From Halicephalobus mephisto (taxonomy: Eukaryota > Nematoda > Chromadorea > Rhabditida > Panagrolaimidae): a stretch of 64,000 nt of DNA. The first letter of the stretch is position 1. Each line of letters begins with the position of its first letter. The DNA is taken from assembly GCA_009193035.1 (NCBI GenBank), contig SWDT01000104.1, positions 1 to 64,000 on the forward strand. Reading direction: 5' to 3'. Under the pieces are notes generated by a model. The model searched no databases and had not been told where the DNA came from. It was given only the letters and a program-made list of their open reading frames with translations. Made by a program: the position numbers and the translations under genes. Below, piece after piece: positions 9,316-56,800 of the stretch.

Positions 9316-10032
9316 ATGATGAAAACTGAAAACAACACCTTCTGTGGAATCCATGTTAGAGTTTGTTATTTAAACTGATAAATAAATCTCCAACAAAAAT
9401 TTTTTAGAGACTCGCTAATGTCCTTGCTATGTTGTCTATAGGTTCCCGCATTTTACATATTCCGATGATTATCATCAGTCAGTACTGGATTCTGATTCCG
9501 TACATATTGATTATTTCCCTTATGGATGTTGCGGTTCTGCTAGCTGGTTTGTTAGAAAAGCCTTTTCTTTACACCCCGTTCCTTATTTCCAGCGTAAGTA
9601 ATATGATCAATTAATGGTTGTTTTATCAAAATAATAAATTTCAGCCAATCTTAATCTTTAGTGAAATATTAGAGATTGTAATACTCACTCTTTTTATTCT
9701 TTCTACTCCAAAACTACTCGCAGAATCCATTTTCCATGAGGAAAGAAACTTAAATACCACGATTTCGATCGTTTCTTCAGATGATTTGAGCCATATAACA
9801 GGTTAGTAAATGTTCTTTTGAAAATTGAGTTATTCTTCGTTTTCCAGAGATAAAAATCTTCTTGATCACTGTATCAATCATCTTGATTATCGTTCAATTT
9901 TTGAAAATCTACTACTGGATTGTTGTCAGTAAAGCTCACAATTACATGACGAAGAAAACTTCTACAAGAACGGAAGGAAACTACGATATAGCAGGAAGCA
10001 TAGCTAATGCGCTTAGTATTGGTTGTATATAG
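9316..10032 (+). CDS. LAPTM-like four-TM protein, gene 1
   Basis: Four exons: 9316-9360, 9408-9593, 9645-9801, 9848-10032 (phases 0, 0, 1), giving 190 aa. Exon 1 encodes MMKTENNTFCGIHVR. The CxxHVR ending is the family hallmark and corresponds to the CCHVR motif at the N-terminus of LAPTM4. Exon 2 (62 aa) carries TM1 and TM2, exon 3 TM3 and a luminal loop, exon 4 TM4 and the cytoplasmic tail. The position matching the usual family start reads ACT instead of ATG (before FHQKYWD), so translation must begin at a downstream ATG and this protein is shorter at its N-terminus. It is also the most divergent member: AGLLEKP replaces the usual ADKYEKP, and SKAHNYM replaces RARAYMI. LAPTM proteins act in late endosomes and lysosomes; that role here is by analogy. 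An AATAAA-type signal lies near 10250. Confidence 0.75.
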
Positions 10033-10715
10033 TGCATTTAAAAGATTATTGATTAAATTCTTGATCGAAAAATGAACCAAGCATCGTTCGTCGTGGTTTG
10101 CTATGAACACTGCAAGATTCTTTCTTTGACCTCAAATTTGGTTATCAATCCTATAATGATAATACAATTTGTATTTATTTATTTACTAGTCACATCTTGA
10201 CTTTGATCATAAAATATCAAATATCAAGAAAATATTTTTAATGAAAGAAATAAAAACAAAATTATTGTATTTGTTTGACTTTTTTGATGAAAATCAATAT
10301 TTGTGAAAAAAGCATGAATTAGTGATGCATATAATTCAATGAGATCCATCAGCAATTAAAAGACAAGTATCAATATGACAATATTCTGACAAATCGCTGA
10401 AATATCTCTAAAAATTCTAAATTCTTAAAGATAACGTTCTCTTTGCAAATTTTACAAATCATTTGTAAATGTTCCAAGATGCGAATTTGAAAGTATTTTT
10501 CGAGAAACTGATTGCGACTGGTTTAACTTCAAAATTAAATTAATCTCAAAGTTCCCTTCAAAGAATCTTCACGTAGATCGTTAATGAGAAGGGAAAAATA
10601 GATGTTATTCTAAACAATTAAATTTCTCACTTTATTTCAACATTACTCCGATTTTCTAGAATATCACCTGACTCTTGTTGTCGCATGTTACAAAACACAT
10701 CAAAGATCCATAAAC
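10033..10715. other. Intergenic between LAPTM-like genes 1 and 2
   Basis: AT-rich 3' flank and spacer. No coding frame, RNA gene or repeat recognised. Confidence 0.6.
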
Positions 10716-10716
10716 A

Positions 10717-10745
10717 GACAAGTTTCTTATTGATGTATTCAATCT
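10717..10745 (+). promoter_or_regulatory. Shared upstream motif, LAPTM-like gene 2
   Basis: GACAAGTTTCTTATTGATGT followed by ATTCAATCT, about 129 bp before the ATG. It matches the blocks upstream of genes 1, 6 and 7. Confidence 0.4.
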
Positions 10746-10845
10746 CGATTTGGTTTTTGCTGTTTTAACAGTTTGAGATCATATTTTTTTATTTTCGTGT
10801 TCAGTTCTGAATTAAGAATATTTTAAGGAATTAAGTTTACAGAAA

Positions 10846-11623
10846 ATGTTTCGCCAGAAGTATCCGGACGTAGTGAAACCAGAATACATACTTTTTTGTT
10901 GTGGAGTACATGTTAGGGTAGGTTAGATGAATAAATAACCAACTTTGACTACAAGTTTTTAGAAAATGGCCAGCATCATTGCCATTGTTATTCTATTGTT
11001 CCATGTTTTAGGTCTTTTAACAGCCATTATTTTCTACAACTGGCTCCATATTCTGTTTCTTTTAATTTTTTCTTTTCTTGAAATCTTCATTATTTTGGCA
11101 GATAAATATGAGAATCCCAGCTTCTACCTTCCTTTTCTTATTGTTTATGTGAGTTACATGATAGAAGAATAGTTGCATCTCTAATCGCAAAAATTCAGGG
11201 AATGACACTTATTTTCCAAGCAATGCTGATCGTAATATCCATAATTTACATCTTCATTCCTCAAAAGACTTACAGTAAGTATATCTTTGAAGTTAAAATG
11301 AAATCAAATGCTTTCGTTTCTATTAATTTTTCAGATAAGGGCGTTGATCGAACAGGTTAGTGATTATTTTCGGCAATTCTGTAATCACTTTATTTTTAAT
11401 AATATTAGGACTCGTAAGTTTCATGGTAATCTTCATGATAATCATTGAACTTATTATGCTCTCCTTCTGGAATATTGTCTACAGAGCCCGAGCTTATATG
11501 ATCGCCGAAGTTACTTCTGGAAACGTCCAAATAAGCGTTGTTACAGATGAATATAACTATCCTCCACCTCCTTACTGTAATGCAGTACAAATAGAGTTGA
11601 AGAACTATCAACCAAAATCTTAA
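10846..11623 (+). CDS. LAPTM-like four-TM protein with PPPY tail, gene 2
   Basis: Five exons: 10846-10917, 10963-11148, 11199-11274, 11335-11355 (a 21 bp micro-exon), 11409-11623; phases 0, 0, 1, 1; 189 aa. The N-terminus MFRQKYPD ends in CCGVHVR. Four hydrophobic segments follow, with the family block ADKYENPSFYLPFLIVY after TM2 and WNIVYRARAYMIAE after TM4. The cytoplasmic tail contains PPPPYCNA, a PPxY motif. In vertebrate LAPTM4/LAPTM5 such motifs bind WW domains of NEDD4-family ubiquitin ligases and direct lysosomal sorting. This is the only member of the array with the motif, which supports the LAPTM assignment. Poly(A) signal AATAAA at 11778-11783. Its closest paralogue here is gene 5, which shares KMASI at the exon 2 start and a micro-exon. 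Confidence 0.85.
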
Positions 11624-12641
11624 TCGAAGAACAAATTAAGCGTTGTTCATAATAGGAACGAAGTTTTAGTGGTCTGGTTAATTTTTATCTCCCAAAGGTG
11701 GATTATAAGCTATAATCTTATCATGAATAATGCTTAGTTGATTTTCTTATTAATAGTTTAGTTACTTATGTTATAACAATAAAACTATATGCAGTTATTT
11801 TTTTTTGCATCTTGCCGTTTATAATAAAATGGTTTTATAGGAAATTTAAAAAAAAATGAAACAAAATATGATATTTATTTGTCATCTCGTTATTTATATA
11901 ACTTGGCTTAAGTTAGTAAAGTTGATAGTTCAACTATAGTAACAGTTAAAGAAGTATAAATTTAACAATAATTCGACTAAAGACACAAGTTTTGTTGCGA
12001 AGACATTGAACAGTCTTTTTTATTGTTCTAACTCAATTTTTAATATATTTTCTATGTAGTTATCAATCCCAAAAATATAAAAATTGACGAAAATAACAGA
12101 ATTTCAACAAAGAATAAGATGAAAGAAAAATAAGTTCATGTTGATGAATTTTGAAAAATCTGTGTTTCGAGTCAAATGTGATCAAAATAATACTTTTCTT
12201 TTAATTATTGATCAATAATGTTAAACTATCAGTTTTACAAATCCAAATATCTCCTACTAGATAATGTAGGGCATAAACAGAGTTGAGCATGGAGATTTTA
12301 CTTTTCCACAAAAAAAACTTTCAAAGAAGATATTAACTTGTGGTTAATGTTTACCGTGATTAGCAAATAAATACAGATACTAGTACTATTAAAGAATCAT
12401 AAATCATGATTATGATTGAAGAACACATCAAGTATTGTTCGTAGCGAAATTATTTCTTCAAAAATACCATCAAAAGATTGAAAATCAATAGAATTACCAA
12501 ATAGCAAAACGTTTGCAACATCATAAACGATACTCGATTCATTCTTCCAGAATCAGATTTGTTTGTTAGCTTTTAATTGCACTTTGGTTTCATCAAGTCG
12601 AGATGTGAAGGATTTTCCTCTTTGCTTACGTCAGAACTTTT
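11624..12641. other. Intergenic between convergent genes 2 and 3
   Basis: About 1 kb of AT-rich sequence between the 3' ends of gene 2 (plus) and gene 3 (minus). Nothing else recognised. Confidence 0.6.
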
Positions 12642-13308
12642 CTAGTTATTTCTAGAAACAACTTCGGCAATCATGTGAGCTCGGGCTCTACGTACAATGC
12701 TCCAATAATAGAATCCAGAGAATTCAATAATGACAAGATTGATCAGCAGAATCGTCATCGCTAGAAATCAAACCATAAATTAATTTTCAAAAGTAAATTC
12801 ACTAACCTATTTGAGTATCCACATCAATCGAGAAAATAATCGAAGCCAATGTTCTTAAGCCACTGTTTGCGGAAGATATGAGTTCGATCAAGTTTAAATC
12901 CAACAAGTTGAAAAGAATAAGACCTATGAACTTCACTAGTCCAATGATAAGTAGAAATCCCTGGAATTTTTACATTTTATAAAGATAACTTCCGCGATTA
13001 CGGTACTTACTACAATAATGAGGAAAGGAAGGTAGAGGACAGGTTTTTTAAATTGGTCTGCCAGAAGAATAAAGATATGAATATGAAGAATAATTATATG
13101 AAAGAAAACATAGAATTCGTACTTGTAAAATAGCGCTGTCATAAAAAGCATAGCACTGTAGGTCAAACAAAAAAAGGCAAAAAAACTTGTCAATTGCTGA
13201 AAAAATATCTACTTACTGTGACCAAACATTTGGATAACATACCCTAACATGAATACCACAACTTAGATAGTCATCTTTCATCGGATTTGGATTGTTCTGA
13301 TGTGTCAT
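12642..13308 (-). CDS. LAPTM-like four-TM protein, gene 3 (inverted)
   Basis: Four exons on the minus strand: 13243-13308, 13011-13196, 12807-12960, 12642-12760; phases 0, 0, 1; 174 aa. Exon 1 encodes a 22-residue start ending in LSCGIHVR. Exon 2 is again exactly 186 bp and ends in ADQFKKPVLYLPFLIIV. Exon 4 ends WSIVRRARAHMIAEVVSRNN with no PPxY. It is the only member of the array on the minus strand and lies head to head with gene 4, so a local inversion has moved it. The four-TM arrangement and exon structure make the family assignment firm; cellular role is inferred from LAPTM. Confidence 0.82.
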
Positions 13309-14437
13309 TTTCTGTAAAACTGTACTGTGTAAAACTATTGCAAATTTTGAAAAATCGAAACGAAAGTAGAACAAAGATTTCAGTTCAAAATCTTTAGTAT
13401 CTATATTGAATTTCTGAAACGAATTTGTTATTCTTGAAAGACAACCGGAAAAATAATTATGTATAGTAAAAGTAGTAAATCCTTACCAACTATTTTGGAG
13501 CTTGAGGAATAATGAAAATTAAATATAAGTTAACCTGAATTTCGATTTCTTGATGTTGAGATACAATAGATTTCAATAATCAAGTTTTAGTTCTACCGTC
13601 ATTCAGAATTACTAATTTCACTGTTAGGCAAATACTTTTTTTGGACAAAATAAATTAAACGAACAAACAAAAATTATCTTCATTTTCCTATTTGATTTTA
13701 CAAGAGTAGAAACTTGATTCAAAATAGCTCTTTGAATGAGATTATAACTCATTTTATATTGTATTTAACATATATTTAGAATATGTATTTAATTTTTGTT
13801 ATATATATTTTGAAGTAAAAAATCTTATAATTGAAAGTTAAAAACAGAAAAGTTTTTCCTTATTTGTCGTTCTATCAACCATCTATCTTGATTTGTTCAT
13901 TTTTTACATTAACGTCACTAAATTTAGTAATTCTGTCCGTAATTCAGTGTATTCGTTTGTTCACTACAGCTGACTAATTGTTTTTCTCAAAATTAAATTA
14001 AAACCAAAGACAGTATTCGAAATAGTGTCTTCGTTACTTTATTCTGAACACAAATCTCAAACTTGGATAATTAAACCTTATAAACGCGCTATAAAATACA
14101 AACGCAACACGATCGATAAATTTTTGTTAAGACTGTTAGCAGTCTCTCTGGATCGATGGTGTTATCGCTGTTCCGATCAGACACATAACAGCTTGAGTTT
14201 GTGAATGCTCCTTATTATTTTATTTTTATAAAACGTCAGTAAAACCGGATTTTAACTTCTGAATATACTTTTTAAAGTCTCCAAATTGCTACAGAACAGA
14301 TTTGTAAAGACCGTTTTGAGCGAATTATTTTTTCTTGTTGTTTTTGTAGGAGTTTCTCAAGAATATATTCGATCTGAATTTGATTTCTACCTGATATTTT
14401 TAACTTACAGTAATTTTAGAAATTAATTTTACAGGAA
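13309..14437. other. Divergent promoter interval between genes 3 and 4
   Basis: About 1.1 kb separating the start codons of two head-to-head paralogues. AT-rich, no coding frame found. Both promoters must lie here. Confidence 0.55.
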
Positions 14438-15269
14438 ATGGCCCATCAACAGAATTCCGATACGGTAAAGCCTAATTATGAAATCTGTGGATTTCATGTT
14501 AGGGTATGTCATCTGAACATTGAATAATTATCAACTGGAAGTTTTTTAGACAGTAACTAGAAACATTTCCTTCTTCACCATATTCTTCTTTGCTCCATTT
14601 CTTCAGGAAGCCCTTGTCAATGATTACGGATTTACAATTCTGTTCATCCAAATTCTTTCTTTTATTCACATCTTCGTTGTTCTGGCAGACAAATTCGAAA
14701 AGCCAGTCTTCTATCTTCCTTTCCTCATCATTATGGTGAGTAACATCATTGTGAATAAATATTTTTGTAAAAAATAACGCTATGCAATCTTCGGCCACTC
14801 AATAGTAATAACGATTCTAATCAATACACAAAACTTTACTAACAGTTTATATAACTTTTGAATTTTTCAACTCACAACCTTAAAGGGAAGGAAGAGTATA
14901 AAACTTTTCAGCAAATCCTGCTTTTCATCGGAATAATACAATTCATAAGAAGCATAAGCTTCGCTTTTGCCAATCCAAAGGATTTTATCAAACACATCTC
15001 TAATGAAACGACTAATTCAACAACTCTAGGCTTGGATATTTATCCAGATCACAATCTTCATAATGGAAGTTAGTAAATATTTCTCCACGAACTTAGTTAT
15101 CTTTTACTTTTCAGCATTCATGATATTTTTAATCATTTTTGAACTTTTTGGATTCTACTATTGGAACGTTGTTCGCAAAACTCGAGCTTACATGACAGCT
15201 GAGATAGCATCTGGGAACTTTCACAGAAATTGTGCCATGATCGGATGGGAGAATTTCTCATATGCCTAA
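14438..15269 (+). CDS. LAPTM-like four-TM protein, gene 4
   Basis: Four exons: 14438-14503, 14550-14735, 14912-15068, 15115-15269; phases 0, 0, 1; 187 aa. Exon 1 encodes MAHQQNSDTVKPNYEICGFHVR less the final junction and ends with the family CxFHVR. Exon 2 is 186 bp and ends ADKFEKPVFYLPFLIIM. Exon 3 carries TM3 and a luminal loop with NET and NST sequons that could be glycosylated. Exon 4 has TM4 and WNVVRKTRAYMTAE, then a short tail without PPxY. The intron after exon 2 is unusually long for this gene (176 bp). Poly(A) signal AATAAA at 15454-15459. Family role is by analogy to LAPTM endolysosomal proteins. Confidence 0.85.
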
Positions 15270-16068: not shown

Positions 16069-18328
16069 TTAATAGGCCTGATTGGGAGAGAATCCGACCA
16101 CCTTTCTTTCGCTGACGACTTTAGCGTAGAATTTTGCGGAATCTTTCTGGGTCCTGGTTCTCTGGGGATCGTTGAAGTCCACGTGGTAGAGTCCGAACTT
16201 GGTTTCGTATCCGTCTTTCCATTCAAAATTGTCCATCAAACTCCATGCATTGCTGTAATCGAAAGATTAATTCAATTTTAATTCACACAAGAAACGAACT
16301 ATCCGATCACTCGAGCCCCGTCTTCGTTAATGGCTCTGCTGACCGCAGTCAAATGACCTCTGTAGTACTTGATTCTTTCGTTGTCATGAAGTCCGATGTC
16401 GGAAATAGAATCCATGCATCCGTTTTCAGTCACCATCATTGTCGCATTGTAATCAAGATGGAGTTGCTTGAGAGCCTCCCTCAGACCATCTGGAGTGTAC
16501 GCGATCCAAGGATTGCTGGCGTTAACCCTAAAATATAAAAGTTATGATTCTTTAGAATTCTTAAAAAATCACTCAGAGTTTCGTAAACTCTCAAGCTTCT
16601 CAAAGTTCGTATCGAGATGCCTTTGCACGAAAACGGATATTTGCAATAATCTGGTTATTGGAAAAAAGGAACTTACAGTCTCCAAGGTTCCTTATATGAG
16701 TTGACCAATCCCCAGTCAGTGTTTCTCTGGAAGTCGGATATGAGAAGGACCTGTTTCTCCGCTGGAGTCAAAGCTCGGCTCACGAAGGCCATGTAGTAGT
16801 TAACTCCAAGGAAATCTGCTGATCCCTTGAGACTGTTAAGTTCTTCTGGAGTGAATTCTGGGAGTCTTGATCGATTTCTCATCATGTAGTTGATGGAGTG
16901 ATCTCGGATGGTGTCCTTCACGACCTGAGGGTAGTCTCCGACGAAAATCGGATGCGCGAACCATCCGAAGGCGAATTGGAACGAACGTCTTCCAGCAGCC
17001 ACGTCATCGGGATTCGTAGGGTCCTTGGGGTAATAAAAGGCTCCTGAGAGGGTTATTCCGATTATTCCGTTCTGGGGACCTTGGTATTTTGCTCTGTAAA
17101 CCTCTACGGCTTTCATGTGGGATCTCAGAAGGTTGTGAGCAGCCAAGTACATCGTGTACTCGCAATGAGCGGCAAACTCTCCTGGGGCATGGACTGTTCT
17201 GGTTCCACAGTAATCGTAAGTGACGACGGACAGCGGCTCATTCAGGGTTATCCATTTCTTGACTCTGTCTCCGTATTGAGCGAATATGAAATCAGCATAA
17301 TCAGCAAATCTATCCGCGATGAAAGGGTTCAGGAACCCTCCCAAGTCTTGGAGGTACTGCGGCAAGTCCCAGTGGAACAAGGTAACTAAGGGCTCGATGT
17401 TAGCTGCTAGGAGGGCGTTGATTAAGTTGTTGTAATAATCAACTCCATCCTGGTTTACTGTAGCGTTGGTTCCGTCTGGGAAGATCCTCGACCAAGAAAT
17501 GGAAAATCGGTACTGTTGGACTCCGAGTTCCTGGAGCATTTCAACATCTCTTCTGTATTGATTATAGGAATCACAAGAAACATCTCCGGTTTGGTTGTAT
17601 TTGACCTTGTTTGGTTTGTGGGAGAACACATCCCAATTTGAAGGACCTTTATCTCCGGCATTGTAACCTCCCTCGATTTGGTAGGCAGACGTGGCAACTG
17701 CGAACTTGAAGTCTGCGGGGAATGAAAACTCAACAGGATCCTAAAAGGATTAGAATTAAAATGACGTTTTCATAAACGACCAAACATACAGATGCTCCAT
17801 TAGGGACGCAGTTGTTGCCGGTATTACAACAACATGTTCTTACCATTCCGTTGACAGTACAGCCTCCTGCCTGAAATCAGCTTGGTGTAAGAGTTTTATA
17901 ATTATAAAAATTAAAGTTATTGTGAATTGGTCTCGAGATGAATTTGTACGTGATTGTAGAAGAAATAAGAAAACGAATAGATTTCCGTAGTAATTTGTCA
18001 AACTTAACATTCTCTCACTGTGACTAATTCCACACAAAAATTCAAAATTCTAAGAAATTATGCATTGTTTTTTGCTTAATTACAACACTATAAAAATTCA
18101 TTAAGAACTTACTTGGCAAACCAAGTCCTCATCACATCCGAATTCGTATCTGATGTCTTGTCCGTCATTGTAGTACCTTGTGAAGCAGTAATTCGCGTTG
18201 TTACAAGTCTGAATTGACAGGGGAACTACGGACATCTGATTATCCAGCTCAGTGAAACTCCCATTCTGGCACTTGCGACATGCTACGAACGATACTAATC
18301 CAAGAATAAGGAGAATCTTGAATTCCAT
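16069..18328 (-). CDS. Secreted ET/Ly6-like domain fused to GH1 beta-glucosidase
   Basis: Five exons on the minus strand: 18113-18328, 17790-17870, 16677-17740, 16300-16527, 16069-16252; junction phases 0, 0, 2, 2; 590 aa. Residues 1-17 are a signal peptide ([17 protein letters not shown]). Residues ~18-99 form a small cysteine domain with CNNANYCF and [11 protein letters not shown], the pattern of nematode ET-module/Ly6-like proteins. Residue 100 onward is a complete GH1 domain: [19 protein letters not shown] start, acid/base Glu ~267 in TLNEP, nucleophile Glu ~488 in VTENG, and [19 protein letters not shown] near the end, so it should hydrolyse beta-glycosides outside the cell or in a secretory compartment. 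The GH1 exon has no start codon of its own, and the cysteine-domain exon has no stop before its donor. The Tyr codon in VIGYN is rebuilt across a 47 bp intron (TA|C). A GH1 with an N-terminal Ly6-type domain is not an arrangement I know; known nematode GH1 proteins (klotho-like) lack it as far as I recall. Confidence 0.82.
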
Positions 18329-18842: not shown

Positions 18843-19290
18843 CCGTGATTTTCACCCATTTTAAATATCAGCAATGTAATAAAAGTCAGTGATGATGGTC
18901 AGATATGTCAAACAATAACTTCCTTATTGCTTGTGCTTTCTTCGAACACGGTAATTAACGTCTCCTTCCTGGTTGATAAGACTCCAATGACCTTTTGTCG
19001 TGGCGTTTAGAATGCGGATTGCAAGCTGAGGAAAAAAATTTTAGGTATACGATAATTTTATGTTTTCATTGAATGGAACTTACTACTCGAACATCAACAA
19101 CCCTATTAAATAAAAATTTAAATACATTGTCAAAAAAATGTAGAATAAATATTAAAGAACAATAGTTATTTTTAGAATTGAACAAAAATTATCTATACTA
19201 GCGTAATAAGATTTCCCAATATCATATCTGAAATTAGTGTTGAATCTTGATCTTTAAAATTCGGAAACTTAAAATTCAATACCAATGTAA
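18843..19290 (-). repeat. ~430 bp duplicated segment, copy 1
   Basis: Nearly identical to 21194-21640 across about 430 bp. It includes an orphan coding-like exon (see separate entry) and a 25 bp block (about 19122-19147) that is inverted relative to copy 2. It lies directly upstream (in gene orientation) of the fused GH1 gene. Confidence 0.85.
18927..19028 (-). CDS. Orphan C-terminal exon, copy 1 (unrecognised)
   Basis: On the minus strand, a good acceptor (TTTTTTTCCTCAG) is followed by 33 sense codons and TAA: the peptide starts LAIRILNATTKGHWSLINQE and ends YRVRRKHKQ. A preceding GT donor (CGAGTA|GTAAGT near 19084) would join in phase to a short upstream exon ending VVDVRV. No further upstream exon could be recognised. 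The basic C-terminus (RVRRKHK) and splice signals suggest a real 3' exon, but it could be a gene remnant. No family recognised. Confidence 0.35.
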
Positions 19291-20667: not shown

Positions 20668-21193
20668 TTTTGCTTACCTAAAATAACTTAAGATTAGTAT
20701 ACAGATTCCTTATATTTGTAAAATTCGGACACTATTTATTTAAAACAGCTTAGCAATAAATGAAATAGTTGATCAATCTTGTCAATTTGTCCAAAATTGT
20801 GCCTTAATTCTCGAAAATGATAACATTTTAGATTTTTACTTTTGGCATTTTTATAAATTTTCTCAAAGATCTGGTTTTAATTATGTTAAAAAACATCATT
20901 GATGGAATAATCAAAGAGTCTGCTATGAGACATAACTTCTTGATAGAAATTATGGCTTCAGAGGATTGATTCGCAAGAAACAAAATTGATCTCAACAATA
21001 AACGCGGCTTATAGCAATAAGAATAAGATTAATTTTACTAAAATCGGTAAACTTCGAAATCAAAGTCTTCACCTTGCGCGTAATGTTTAACTGCATTTTG
21101 ATATCGACCTCTTTATAGACCTCAGTACTACCTAATCAAAGTATTCCTAAGAAGGTCTTTGAATTACTCTACGAGAGTTCCCGATATGAGTCT

Positions 21194-21640
21194 CCGTGAC
21201 TTTTTAGGGGTTTTAAAGATCAGCAATGTAATAAAAGTCAGTGATGATGGTCAGATATGTCAAACAATAACTTCCTTATTGCTTGTGCTTTCTTCGAACA
21301 CGGTAATTAACGTTGTCTTCCTGGTTGATAAGACTCCAATAACCTTTTGTCGTGGCGTTTAGAATGCGGATTGCAAGCTGAGGAAAAAAATCTTAGGTTT
21401 ACGATAATTTTATGTTTTCATTGAATGGAATTTACTACTCGAACATCAATAATTCAGTTAAATAAAAATTTAAATACATTAATATTTATTCTACATAATG
21501 TTTTTGACAAAGAACAATAGTTATTTTTAGAATTAAACAAAAAGTATCTATACTAGCGTAATAAGATTTCCCAATATCATATCTGAAATCAGTGTTGAAT
21601 CTTGATCTTTAAAATTCAGAGATTTAGAATCATTGAATAT
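21194..21640 (-). repeat. ~430 bp duplicated segment, copy 2
   Basis: Second copy of 18843-19290, lying upstream of the ET/Ly6-like gene at the same distance (about 2.34 kb period) as copy 1 lies from the fused gene. The unit therefore duplicated together with an ET/Ly6-like gene. The block at about 21480-21507 is the reverse complement of the matching block in copy 1. Confidence 0.85.
21267..21368 (-). CDS. Orphan C-terminal exon, copy 2 (unrecognised)
   Basis: Same acceptor, frame, length and TAA as copy 1. The peptide differs by His to Tyr and by a GlyAsp to AspAsn pair; all the base changes seen in the frame alter the protein. The upstream donor region is weaker here (GTAAAT in place of GTAAGT) and the short upstream exon seen in copy 1 is not conserved. 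Either a decaying copy or a non-coding repeat. Confidence 0.3.
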
Positions 21641-27408: not shown

Positions 27409-28124
27409 ATGTTTTGTCCAAAATATCCGGATATAGAAGAACCCAAGTACGACGGTTGCTGTGGGATCCATGTTAGGGTATGTTATTTCAATATTTAATT
27501 ACAATTGGTTTAATTTTTTAGATGTTAGCTAGCGCTCTTGCTATCATTGACTTATTCTACTATGTTATGTATATTATTATATTTTTGATTTTCAACGAAT
27601 GGCACCTAATGGTCTTAATGGCGATCCTCTGTTTCTTTGACATTGCTGTTCTTCTAGCGGACAAATACGAGAAGCCGATTTTCTACCTCTCTTTCCTGGT
27701 TGTTAACGTAATTACCATGATCGATAAATACTTATTTTATAAAAATGAAAGCTTTTAGGCGATCGTGATTTTCCCCTTCATATTGCTCACCATTGCAGGC
27801 TTAGTTATCATGATTTTTTCCCCAGAATTACTAACTGAACAAAATCCTGACATGAAAAATGCCTCAAACATTATGACTTCGACTACTTCCTTAGATATTT
27901 CAAGTAATAAAACAGGTTGCTTAATGTTTTTTGATAATTTAACTGTACTTTGCTGTTTAGGAATAACAACTGATATTATCATCTTTATAATAATGATATT
28001 TATTACATTGTATCAGTGGAATATCATTCGGAAAGCCCGAGCGTACATGATTGCTGAAGTTCTCTCTGGAAACGTCCAGCATAGTTGCCCTGGAATACAA
28101 GAGGAACAAATCCCACCTGTCTAG
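27409..28124 (+). CDS. LAPTM-like four-TM protein, gene 7
   Basis: Four exons: 27409-27477, 27522-27707, 27759-27915, 27961-28124; phases 0, 0, 1; 191 aa. N-terminus MFCPKYPDIEEPKY, then GCCGIHVR. Exon 2 (186 bp) ends ADKYEKPIFYLSFLVVN. Exon 3 has TM3 and a Ser/Thr/Asn-rich luminal loop with an NAS sequon and an NKT sequon at the intron junction. Exon 4 gives TM4, WNIIRKARAYMIAE and a short acidic tail ending IPPV. Poly(A) signal AATAAA at 28364-28369. Closest relative is the broken copy at 29872. Confidence 0.84.
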
Positions 28125-33419: not shown

Positions 33420-34821
33420 ATGGCTCGAGTTGCTTTTAGCATGATCTGCGCTATTGCGCTTCTTAGCACGGTTTACGCGGTAAGTTCTCAAATAAAATGT
33501 AAATTTTACCTTAATATACTATAGGATGAGGTTGTTATCCGTGCCAAGCGTCAGAACTGCGGCAGTGCTGGCTATTGTGGTAATTCCTGCTGTCCTCAAC
33601 AGCAACAGCCAACCTGCGTCTGCACTCCTGTTCAACAAGATCCTTGCTGCCAACAGCAGCAGCAACAACCTGCTTGTGTCTGTACCCCTGTTCAACAAGA
33701 TCCATGTTGCCAGCAAGAACAACAACCCGCTTGTGTCTGTACCCCTGTCCAACAAGACCCTTGCTGCCAACAACAACAGCAACAGCCTGCTTGTGTCTGT
33801 ACTCCAGTCCAACAGGATCCTTGCTGCCAACAGCAACAACAGGACCCATGCTGCCAGCAACCGAGCCAACAGCAAGAATGTAACTGTATTCAAGGTTGGG
33901 ATTGAGTACTGTATCATTAGTAGATGGCATGGATTTTAGTGACCATCCAAGCCCAATGTATCTGCAACCAGCAACAGCAGGATCCTTGCTGCCAACAGCA
34001 GCAACAGCAACCTACTTGCGTCTGTACCCCTGTTCAACAGGACCCTTGCTGCCAACAACAACAGCAACAGCCTGCTTGCGTCTGTACCCCTGTCCAGCAA
34101 GATCCATGCTGTCAGCAGCAACAGCAACCCGCTTGCGTCTGCACCCCTGTCCAACAAGACCCTTGCTGCCAACAACAACAACAGCAACCAGCTTGTGTCT
34201 GTACTCCAGTTCAACAGGATCCTTGCTGCGAACAGCAGCAACAGCAACCCGCTTGCGTTTGCACCCCAGTCCAACAGGATCCTTGCTGCCAACAACAACA
34301 ACAGCAACCCGCTTGCGTCTGCACCCCTGTTCAACAGGACCCTTGCTGCCAACAACAACAGCAACAACCCGCTTGCGTCTGCACTCCGGTCCAACAGGAT
34401 CCTTGTTGCCAACAACAACAGCAACAACCCGCTTGCGTTTGCACCCCAGTCCAACAAGATCCCTGCTGTCAGCAACAAGAGGCGGTCACTTCCCAGCCTT
34501 TGACTATTACTCTCCAGGTGACCTAGAGTAATATAAATTTCGATTCAAGTCCTTGTTACAGATCCAATGCCCTCAACAGTGCCAACCCTCCTGCTCTTCC
34601 CAGTGCGTCCAACAAAACCTTCCAGCCACCATGTCTTGCTCCACTAATAACTGCCAATGTCAGCCTGGGTTAGTACAGCATCCTATTACTTCTAGGATAT
34701 AGTTATATAAGTGTACAATTAATACTGTGGCAATTTTAGATACACTCAGTGCGCCCAGGGTCAGTGCTGTCTCCGCTACAAGTACATGAGAAGACGTGCT
34801 CGTCGCTCTGTCCGTGCCTAA
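33420..34821 (+). CDS. Secreted Cys/Gln-rich repeat protein
   Basis: Five exons: 33420-33479, 33525-33894, 33940-34517, 34562-34668, 34740-34821; phases 0, 1, 0, 2; 398 aa. Exon 1 is exactly a 20-residue signal peptide (MARVAFSMICAIALLSTVYA). A dibasic RAKR follows, a likely proprotein cleavage site. The body is 12 copies of a ~20-residue unit, CVCTPVQQDPCC followed by five to six Gln and PA, four in exon 2 and eight in exon 3. The C-terminal part is non-repetitive (CQPSCSSQC, NNCQCQPGYTQC, QCCLRYKYMRRRARRS) and has the look of a nematode secreted cysteine-rich protein. The Cys pairs suggest extensive disulphide cross-linking, as in a matrix, eggshell or cuticle component; this is inference. 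Repeat length polymorphism between individuals is likely. Confidence 0.85.
33600..34480 (+). repeat. Coding ~60 bp minisatellite
   Basis: Nucleotide repeat underlying the 12 protein units, interrupted by intron 33895-33939. CAA/CAG runs and TGCTGC pairs recur. Long open frames in the other five frames here are by-products of this periodic composition. Confidence 0.85.
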
Positions 34822-53895: not shown

Positions 53896-56800
53896 TTAAA
53901 GTTCTCCTTGACCAATTTCGCTTTGTTCATCCTCGCTTTTTGGGAAATGGTCGGATTTGTGGATGGATTCGTGGTCGGATTCTTGATAAGGATTTGAATT
54001 CTCTTCAGACATGTCGATTCCATCTTCCATGAGTTGATGAGAATCGCCATTTGGAGAGTGAATAATTTCTGATTCATAATGATGTTGATGATGATCTTCG
54101 TCGTAATGAGTTTGGTTAACATTAGGACTTATGGGGGTTGGGGGTTCGGATATTTCATCTACTTGTGAATCTCCAAAATCAGAAGCAGCTGTTATTTCAA
54201 TAGAAGGTTGAGTAAGAAGATTGATTGAATTTCCTTGATTTTGATTAATCAAATTATTTGGATTTTCATCAACAGGAGAATTTTCAACGATATCTAGTGA
54301 TTCTGGTTTATGTTGAATTTCTCTTTCATGATGTTCAAAACTTTCTAATGATCGAACAGAAGTCCCTAATGGATCTAAAGTTTCTGATTCTTCAAATGGT
54401 GTATTACTATGAATAACAGCGAATTCTGTAGGATTCTGATTATCTACAGTATTGGAATGAATGTATTCAGTAGGAGTAGGAGTTAATTTTTCGAAATCGT
54501 GAAGTTTATCTTCATCGTCCCCTGGTGCTTCACTTTGACTCTGGAATCCAGCATCTGAACTTTCGTTGAATCTGTCTTCTGTTGTGTGATGTTCTGATTC
54601 GAATTTGTGAACAGAATCATGGTCGTCAGCTTCAGAAGCACTGAAAGAAATGTTGTCTTGAGTCTGGGAGATTTGTTCAGAAGATTCTTGGTAGATAGAT
54701 TGTTGCATTGGATCAAACGAAGATTCGTTGAAATTTTCTGAAGTTGTGTGATTTCCAATTTGTTCTTGGTCATCAGGATGACTGGATAAAGTATGGATTT
54801 CTCTTAGTTCGTATTTTTCTTCTGGATCTTGTTCGTGATGTTCTTCGATTTTTTCTTCTTGATCAATGACGTCATCACTTGGATGTTCAGATTCTTGAGG
54901 TTGATCTTGATGAACAATTGAATCACTTTCTTCTTTTTGAATATCTTCAGGTTCTGGTTGATATTCTTGAACTTGTTCTTGTTCATCTTGGTGAATAACC
55001 GTATCATCAGTTTCTTCTCTATGATCGGATTCAGCTTCTGATTGGTGTTCTGGATGAGCAATGTAATCATCCGCATCCTCTTTTGTTTGAATATCTTCAG
55101 GTTCTGGTTGATATTCTTGAACTTGTTCTTGTTCATCTTGATGAATAACGTAATCATCAGTTTCTTCTCTATGATCGGACTCAGTTTCTGATTGGTGTTC
55201 TGGATGAGCAATGTAATCGTCTGCATCCTCTTCTTTTTGAATATCCTCAGGTTCTGGTTGATATTCTTGAACTTGCTCTTGTTCATCTTGGTAAATAACG
55301 TAATCATCTACATCCTCTTCTTTTTGAATATCTTCGTGTTCTTGTTCATCTTCTCGAGGTTGTGGTTGATCATCCTGATGATCGTTGGAATCATCTACTT
55401 CTTGTTGGACATGTTCAACTTCAGATTCTTGATGTTGTTGTTGATCATCTTGTTGAATAACATAATCATCTACATCCTCTTTTTGAACATCTTCATGTAC
55501 TGATTCTTGTTCATCTTCTTGAGGTTGTTCTTCGTGATGAAATTCTTTTTCCATCGATTCTTCATCATGGATGGTTTCAACTACATCAACTTTTTCGACT
55601 TCATGATGTTCCTCGATGGTTTCAGCTTCGTGTTGAGATTCATGTTGGCTTTGTGTCTCAGAACGAATTTCTTTGTCACCAGGGTATTCTGCTTGTGGTT
55701 CTTCAGATTCATATTCAATCTCTCGTTTTTGAATAACATGTTCATGAAATTCGTCCTCAGGATTTTCGTCTTCATGATGTTCAATATTTTCTTCTTGTTT
55801 GTTTGATTCTGATTCATTGTTTGAAGTTTCTTCAAAATGTTGGATTTCTTGAGGATGTTGATCTTCATCCTGAGGATTCTCATCTCCTTCACTTGGTACA
55901 GGGCTTTTTTCTCCTGTCGTTAATCTTTCAGCAATGGTAGAAACTGCTTCATTGAAGGCTTCAGTTGCTGCAGAAGCCCCGGTCGAAATCGCAGCTGCCA
56001 AACCTGAACTTTGAGTGTCTTCTTGTTCTTCATTGCCAGTTTCTTCTGGAGTCAGAATACGTTCCTCATCAGGTTCACTTTTGTCTTCCTTTTCGTAAGT
56101 TTCGTAGGAAACTTCCTCGTGATGTGAATCAGTTTCTTTTTCCCCTTCTGGAGTAAGTTCTCTTTGTTCTTGTTGATGATGGATATATTCGACTTCATGT
56201 TCTTGTTCGGGTTCTGATTTCGGAGTAGGTGTTCTAGTTTTACTTTCAACGACTTCAGATTCCTCAACTTCTTGACTTTGAAGTTCCACTTCGCGGTCTT
56301 CAGATTCATCGTTATCTTCGTGAACAAAAACAGCTTCATCGACTCCACCTGTTTCAGGTTCTGATTTCGGAGTTGGTGTTCGAGTATTACTGTCGACGAC
56401 TTCAGCGGTTTCGATTTCTTGTTTTTGGGATTCTATTTCAGCATTATCATTTCTATCACTACTTGCACTAAGAGCTGCAATAGCTCCACCGACTGCAGCT
56501 GCTCCAGCTGCCAGGATACCTCCCAGTCCCTTGGATGAACTTTCACTAGTCTTACTCGAGCGAGATTCACTTGTTTTCTGAGTTCTCGGAGGTTTTGATG
56601 GGGGTCTAAAAACCTTTTTTAGTATTGATTTATATTATATAATATGATTTAGAATGTTGGAAGTACTGGTTGTAACTTGGTTTGTCATACAGTAATAGTG
56701 AGTACTGTAGATTGGTGAGCTCATGGAATAGGTTCTAAAAGTTCATGATGATATCTCCAAGACTTTTGCTTCAGGAGTTGTGAGAAATACGAAATTTTCA

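What the first reader, a model, noticed from the sequence alone, without database searches (positions are those of the whole stretch)
16069..18328. In-frame fusion of an ET/Ly6-like domain to an active-site-complete GH1 glycosidase
Seen: the GH1 exon starts at FPADFKF-type sequence with no Met. The preceding exons encode a signal peptide and a cysteine domain and join in phase 0 without a stop. Both GH1 glutamates (TLNEP, TENG) are present. A neighbouring single-domain paralogue ends with a stop exactly where this gene continues. Known: Ly6/ET domains are binding modules, often at membranes; GH1 cleaves beta-glycosides. Inference: a captured binding module could target the enzyme to a glycan, receptor or surface.
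Basis: partly seen in the sequence, partly recalled or inferred. Interest (0 to 1): 0.85.

Follow-up and report, generated by a model that had tools for sequence, protein, structure and literature searches.

The report
Ly6-like domain fused to secreted beta-glucosidase
A nematode gene joins a small cysteine-rich Ly6-like domain to a sugar-cutting enzyme; the fusion is real, old and shared by at least three genera of one nematode family, though what the added domain does is not known.

Summary
The fusion is real and exactly placed. Five exons (minus strand, 18328-16069, all introns GT-AG) encode 590 residues: signal peptide, a 10-cysteine domain, then a complete GH1 with both catalytic glutamates. 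It is neither a private chimera nor a recent capture: nine listed database proteins, from three Panagrolaimidae genera and one metagenome, carry the same domain in the same place, and the window's own genome holds three fused copies and one unfused GH1. The junction intron is phase 0 in all three; dN/dS between the two closest copies is about 0.1 in the cysteine domain. 'ET module' is not supported as a name: none of ten fused domains scanned matches Pfam ET, although ET arrays exist elsewhere in this genome. Cysteine spacing, predicted strands and a few weak matches point to a three-finger (Ly6/uPAR-like) domain, but no curated cut-off is reached and its fold was not tested by a structure search. 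Most likely this is a secreted beta-glucosidase positioned by a Ly6-like module; the binding role is inference. New variant of a known kind.

The parts
18278..18328 (-). start codon and signal peptide (about residues 1-17)
   Evidence: coordinates from the exon map; hydrophobic leader judged by eye; the corresponding stretch of relatives P0066 and P0123 is modelled as a helix
18113..18328 (-). exon 1: signal peptide and first part of the Ly6-like domain (Cys 20, 42, 48, 65, 71)
   Evidence: profile match E 1.7e-30 for the exon's frame, a profile that includes this sequence
17790..17870 (-). exon 2: second part of the Ly6-like domain (Cys 76, 85, 86, 87, 93) and linker NGAS
17741..17789 (-). 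junction intron, phase 0, 49 nt, GTATGT...TTTTAG; same place and phase in two paralogues in this genome
16677..17740 (-). exon 3: main GH1 exon; acid/base Glu in TLNEP at 17248-17234
16300..16527 (-). exon 4: GH1; nucleophile Glu in TENG at 16430-16419
16069..16252 (-). exon 5: GH1 C-terminal part (WSLMDNFEW) and stop codon
20296..20667 (-). neighbouring single-domain Ly6-like gene (two exons; intron one residue after the fifth Cys, phase 0, as in the fused gene)
   Evidence: sequence, intron read by eye; genome search; kinship controls

Best explanation
The gene encodes a secreted GH1 beta-glucosidase-type enzyme whose N-terminal accessory domain is a three-finger, Ly6/uPAR-like disulphide domain. 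Shown: the gene structure, the active-site motifs, conservation in Panagrolaimidae, three copies in this genome and low dN/dS in both halves. Inferred: the protein is secreted, the domain folds as three fingers with five disulphides, the enzyme is active, and the GH1 exon took the place that an anchor-like tail holds in a single-domain relative. Proposed mechanism: the Ly6-like domain, joined by a short conserved linker to the N-terminal side of the GH1 barrel (away from the substrate pocket, from general TIM-barrel geometry), holds or positions the enzyme at a protein or glycan partner in the gut lumen or on a surface, while GH1 cleaves beta-glycosides there.
For: Gene model and motifs. Nine of the 229 listed database proteins have the domain in front of GH1; five of them helped build the profile, the other four score E 3.5e-24 to 1.6e-18. 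They come from Panagrolaimus, Panagrellus, Halicephalobus and an unnamed metagenome. The same genome has two more fused genes, one with exon lengths 216/81/1061/228/184 against 216/81/1064/228/184 here. Among the ten fused proteins compared, the ten cysteine columns are filled wherever the sequence is present, except two that are lost together in P0123, as a disulphide pair would be. dN/dS (NG86) is 0.097 for the mature domain and 0.063 for GH1. Ten fused copies that reach both motifs (three of this genome, seven from databases) all keep NEP and TENG. AF2 models of P0066 and P0123 give six strands in the domain, mostly with pLDDT over 80. Three of ten fused domains match a three-finger Pfam model weakly: QVR, Toxin_TOLIP, Lypd6; none of 10 shuffled controls does. 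The unfused relatives P0074, P0128 and locus G4 start at GH1 without a visible leader.
Against: No binding partner, substrate or localisation is known. The window's own domain matches no three-finger Pfam model even weakly (only BLTP1_N, E 0.46), and no such model reaches its cut-off in any member (best QVR 19.9 bits against 27.3). The Asn after the last Cys, typical of Ly6 domains from recall, is V, I or T in all 12 fused copies. The structure searches were filled by GH1. No transcript was seen. dS is 1.7 and 2.4, near saturation, so dN/dS is rough.
Confidence: 0.5

Rival explanations
1. Leader and folding module: the Ly6-like unit mainly supplies secretion, folding or protease resistance to what was a cytosolic GH1, and binds nothing.
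For: Unfused close relatives (P0074, P0128, G4) begin at GH1 without a visible leader, while the fused copies with a complete start have one, judged by eye. A stable disulphide domain could protect the N-terminus.
Against: A leader alone would not need ten conserved cysteines in domains that are on average 39% identical.
Confidence: 0.25
2. Oligomerisation or regulatory module: the domain packs on the GH1 of the same or a second chain and sets quaternary structure or activity.
For: Short linker with an Ala invariant in six fused copies and fair pLDDT through it.
Against: No inter-chain or inter-domain contact was computed; the barrel's N-terminus lies away from the pocket (general knowledge).
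Confidence: 0.15
3. Gene-model or assembly artefact: two neighbouring genes read as one.
For: No transcript was available here; the junction is a short 49-nt intron.
Against: Same junction in two other loci of the genome and the same architecture in nine listed database proteins. P0122 carries domain and the first part of GH1 in one 402-codon frame, longest contig 1720 bases. The GH1 exon has no Met before residue 167.
Confidence: 0.02
4. Catalytically dead, Klotho-like co-receptor built from GH1 plus a receptor-type three-finger domain.
For: Klotho chains are among the PDB sequence matches of P0066; three-finger domains are common in receptors (general knowledge).
Against: Both glutamates are present in the ten fused copies that reach both motifs; the other motifs checked are intact too, except NFY for NYY in P0121.
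Confidence: 0.05

Closest known systems
GH1 beta-glucosidases of animals (termite 3ahz, aphid myrosinase 1wcg, human cytosolic beta-glucosidase 2e9l/2zox)
   Different: No cysteine domain: by sequence the best stretches of the 60 PDB matches shown for P0066 begin at residue 94 or later
Ly6/uPAR (LU, three-finger) proteins such as LYPD1 (6zss), Quiver, GPI-anchored Ly6
   Same: Eight-cysteine core spacing (pattern recalled), CC...C end, six predicted strands; weak, non-significant matches
   Different: Below every curated cut-off; Asn after the last Cys missing; an enzyme follows instead of an anchor tail
ET module (PF01684)
   Same: Cysteine-rich nematode domain; the single-domain neighbour scores 14.9 bits against a cut-off of 25
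   Different: The ten fused domains scanned do not match it; ET arrays above cut-off lie elsewhere in the genome, on C296 and C315
Lactase-phlorizin hydrolase and other tandem GH1 proteins
   Same: GH1 of the animal lineage; top hits
   Different: Several GH1 repeats there; here a single GH1 behind a cysteine domain

Membership tests
GH1 beta-glucosidase | Pfam PF00232 above its cut-off over the whole domain | tested here: met
   503.7 bits against 22.6, profile positions 3-451 of 453
GH1 beta-glucosidase | acid/base Glu (NEP) and nucleophile Glu (TENG) | tested here: met
   residues 266-268 and 487-490; roles of the two motifs recalled
GH1 beta-glucosidase | hydrolysis of beta-glycosides | not testable with these tools
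   needs an enzyme assay
ET module | match to PF01684 above 25 bits | tested here: not met
   no ET match for five fused proteins or the ten fused members of A5; the one ET match is the single-domain neighbour, 14.9 bits. The domains of G2 and G3 were not scanned with Pfam
Ly6/uPAR (three-finger) superfamily | eight-cysteine core with adjacent CC before the last Cys | tested here: met
   one copy, P0123, has lost one cysteine pair; reference pattern recalled
Ly6/uPAR (three-finger) superfamily | Asn directly after the last Cys | tested here: not met
   V, I or T in 12 of 12 fused copies; Asn is present in both single-domain genes
Ly6/uPAR (three-finger) superfamily | curated three-finger Pfam model above cut-off | tested here: not met
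   best QVR 19.9 of 27.3 bits, in P0123's domain; none for the window's own domain
Ly6/uPAR (three-finger) superfamily | three-finger fold | tested here: inconclusive
   six strands predicted in two relatives; fold searches were filled by GH1
Klotho (GH1-type co-receptor) | loss of catalytic Glu | tested here: not met
   both Glu present; that Klotho lacks them is recalled

The most novel reading that the evidence does not exclude
A three-finger domain has become a dedicated, covalently attached targeting or glycan-binding module of a glycosidase, a function like that of carbohydrate-binding modules but from a receptor/toxin fold, fixed before these Panagrolaimidae genera split and since duplicated.
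Probability: 0.2. Interest if true: 0.75.

Novelty: new variant of a known kind. Interest (0 to 1): 0.52.

Why it matters
It is an old, duplicated enzyme architecture that domain annotation does not show: the nine fused database proteins carry only PF00232 in the precomputed list, eight are named as a beta-glucosidase or similar and one as hypothetical. If the Ly6-like part binds something, it gives a testable case of a three-finger fold aiming a glycosidase, in culturable free-living nematodes such as Panagrellus redivivus.

Tried and rejected
Recent private chimera: rejected by relatives and paralogues.

ET module: rejected as a label.

Anchored alternative product by retention of intron 2: in the window gene it would add a hydrophobic tail and a stop. 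In G2 the equivalent read-through is not hydrophobic; in G3 it is a longer, mostly polar tail with a short hydrophobic end. Not consistent, so I do not build on it, but it is not excluded.

Search with residues 1-102 alone found nothing: 7 candidates, none at E up to 10. It relies on exact 5-residue words, so this is a limit of the method.

Kinship of the single-domain neighbour to the fused domain: BLASTP of the pair gives E 6e-4 at 26% identity. Against the profile of 12 fused domains it scores 10.7 bits, reached by 1 of 500 full shuffles and 6 of 500 shuffles with cysteines held in place; its sister copy 7.5 bits, reached by 2 and 36 of 500. In pairwise comparison the neighbour against the window domain is reached by 1 of 1000 such shuffles, the other five pairs by 93 to 462 of 1000. 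Sequence support beyond cysteine spacing is marginal; intron position and phase agree. A first version of this test lost rows through duplicate names and is not used.

One origin of the fused GH1 as a strict clade: not rejected (AU p 0.167; p 0.055 with the three other genome loci added and P0126 left out). But the unfused P0074 sits inside it in the free tree, and well-supported branches force at least two changes of state, so a loss or a truncated gene model of P0074 is needed. The tree rows were picked by hand: the nine fused proteins, nematode GH1 and some other animals, 34 of the 229 listed proteins and 33.

Fold of the cysteine domain: structure searches were filled by GH1; the rows span mainly residues 104-586, a few starting between 29 and 80. 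PDB sequence matches of the domain are not significant: neurotoxin II E 0.14 and a muscarinic toxin-like protein E 0.7 for the window domain; eight unrelated chains at E 0.38 or worse for P0122's domain; kinetochore NNF1 E 0.45 and LYPD1 E 1.4 for the profile.

YN00 dN/dS failed; only NG86 is given.

The C5 hit (E 0.019) reads, by eye, like a proteasome subunit and was dropped.

Literature: searches listed nothing about such a fusion (one search found no paper at all; one search listed 8 of 90). Only listings and abstract starts were seen, except passages of PMC6872716. The library holds open-licence papers only, so absence from print is not shown.

Full report
Observation. On the minus strand five exons (18328-18113, 17870-17790, 17740-16677, 16527-16300, 16252-16069) join without a stop into a 590-residue, 67-kDa protein; every intron is GT-AG. 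Residues 104-579 are a full GH1 domain. The catalytic motifs TLNEP (17248-17234) and TENG (16430-16419) are present, and so are the other GH1 motifs checked, YQIEG, HWDLP, NYY and WSLMDNFEW. The first Met of the GH1 exon is residue 167, so GH1 has no usable start of its own there.

Conservation elsewhere. A whole-protein search found five Panagrolaimus and Panagrellus proteins of 549 to 619 aa covering 98-99% of the query at 45-47% identity. A second search with a profile of residues 1-365 added P0121, P0122, P0123 and the partial Halicephalobus protein P0129. A profile of the cysteine domain finds it in nine of the 229 listed database proteins and in the window protein; five of the nine and the window built the profile, four did not. 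All eight named carriers are Panagrolaimidae by genus (for Halicephalobus sp. NKZ332, P. redivivus and P. davidi; the other Panagrolaimus names); P0122 is unnamed. Unfused nematode GH1 in the lists (Steinernema, Strongyloides, Parastrongyloides, Rhabditophanes, Acrobeloides, Plectus, one Panagrolaimus sp. ES5, one Panagrolaimus sp. JU765) show no such domain at E up to 1. P0126 and P0104 begin inside GH1 and cannot be judged. Only the best 120 rows of each search were seen, of 7420 and 4645 below threshold, so fused copies elsewhere are not excluded.

The same genome. G000 (59.9 Mb, 331 contigs) gave 13 GH1 exon matches, which I group into four loci. The domain lies upstream of GH1 at three of them: the window, C241:161752-164854 (G2) and C241:154388-159397 (G3). 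G2 has exon lengths 216/81/1061/228/184 against 216/81/1064/228/184 in the window; in G2 and G3 the junction intron is phase 0 and the following exon starts GATCC, as in the window. G3 has the whole domain in one exon. The fourth locus (G4, C238) starts at GH1 and groups with the unfused P0128. P0122 reads domain and the first part of GH1 in one frame of 402 codons (longest contig 1720 bases); whether that is cDNA is unknown, and its last residues look out of frame by eye.

Age and selection. In the GH1 tree fused copies form two groups, one with the window, G2, Halicephalobus and Panagrolaimus (96/92, with the unfused P0074 inside), the other with G3, the Panagrellus proteins and P0122 (100/100). 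Both groups occur in this genome, so the duplication, and most simply the fusion, precede the split of these genera; this needs P0074 to be a loss or a truncated model. Monophyly of the fused copies is not rejected, narrowly (AU p 0.055; 0.167 in the earlier set). Between window and G2, dN/dS by NG86 is 0.097 in the mature domain and 0.063 in GH1, with dS 1.7 and 2.4, near saturation. Mean pairwise identity over the 45 pairs of ten fused copies is 39% in the domain and 54% in GH1.

What the domain is. Of the ten cysteine columns in ten fused copies, eight are filled in every copy that reaches them; the other two are missing together, only in P0123, as expected for a bonded pair. Spacing fits the eight-cysteine three-finger core (recalled) plus one extra pair. 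Of the eleven members of A5, each on its own, twelve Pfam families are matched by one member each. Five belong to the three-finger group or, for ET, resemble it: QVR 0.0015 (P0123), Toxin_TOLIP 0.07 (P0075), Lypd6 0.49 (P0121), and Activin_recp 0.021 and ET 0.035, both in the single-domain neighbour. The other seven have no evident link, and the window's own domain matches only one of those (BLTP1_N, 0.46). Ten shuffled fused domains gave two unrelated matches and none of this kind. AF2 models of P0066 and P0123 show six strands there, mostly with pLDDT above 80. No cut-off is reached and the structure searches were filled by GH1. I call it Ly6-like, not a proven member.

The neighbour. The single-domain gene at 20667-20296 has its intron in the same place and phase, one residue after the fifth cysteine (read by eye). 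Its sister at C241:150141-149405 lies near the two fused paralogues, has the same intron and ends in a hydrophobic, GPI-signal-like tail (judged by eye). The window copy stops before such a tail. This suggests that in the fused gene the GH1 exon stands where an anchor tail once stood; sequence support for the kinship is marginal.

Mechanism. Shown: gene structure, conservation, low dN/dS, intact active-site motifs. Inferred: secretion, three-finger fold, enzymatic activity. Proposed: the domain positions a secreted beta-glucosidase at a partner. It joins the N-terminal side of the barrel, so direct gating of the pocket is less likely (general TIM-barrel geometry). The main rival is a leader or folding module.

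Source. The closest named database protein is from Halicephalobus sp. NKZ332 (65% in the domain over 71 residues, 74% in GH1 over 147). Window GC is 30.6% and the assembly 59.9 Mb; a published H. mephisto genome has 32.1% GC (passages of PMC6872716). A Halicephalobus-like panagrolaimid is likely; the species is not established.

Noticed in passing
18859-19128 and 21211-21480 (also 19154-19275 and 21509-21630): Direct repeats, 94-95% identical, flanking the single-domain gene; by eye they hold an exon-like open frame ending RRKHKQ. A 140-base part of the repeat was found at no other place in the genome.
   Followed up: partly
about 20840-21000 (+) and C241:150722-153588 (L033): By eye the window holds a broken remnant of a gene whose open copy lies beside the Ly6-like genes on C241. 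Two of its open stretches match no Pfam family above cut-off; one of them, searched in the genome, is found only there.
   Followed up: partly
17741-17789: If intron 2 is retained the protein ends in a hydrophobic tail and a stop; G2 lacks such a tail, G3 has a longer one with a short hydrophobic end.
   Followed up: partly
33525-34523: Open frames with a 60-base tandem repeat encoding a Gln- and Cys-rich unit (QQQQPACVCTPVQQDPCCQ).
   Followed up: no
53899-56634: Long open frame (912 aa, minus strand) rich in Glu and Gln with a 150-base internal repeat.
   Followed up: no
9829-15269 and 27759-28121: Several similar short membrane-protein-like exons, by eye a local family.
   Followed up: no
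C296:68391-74528 and C315:7370-7933: ET-module arrays above the Pfam cut-off in the same genome, on other contigs than the window gene.
   Followed up: no
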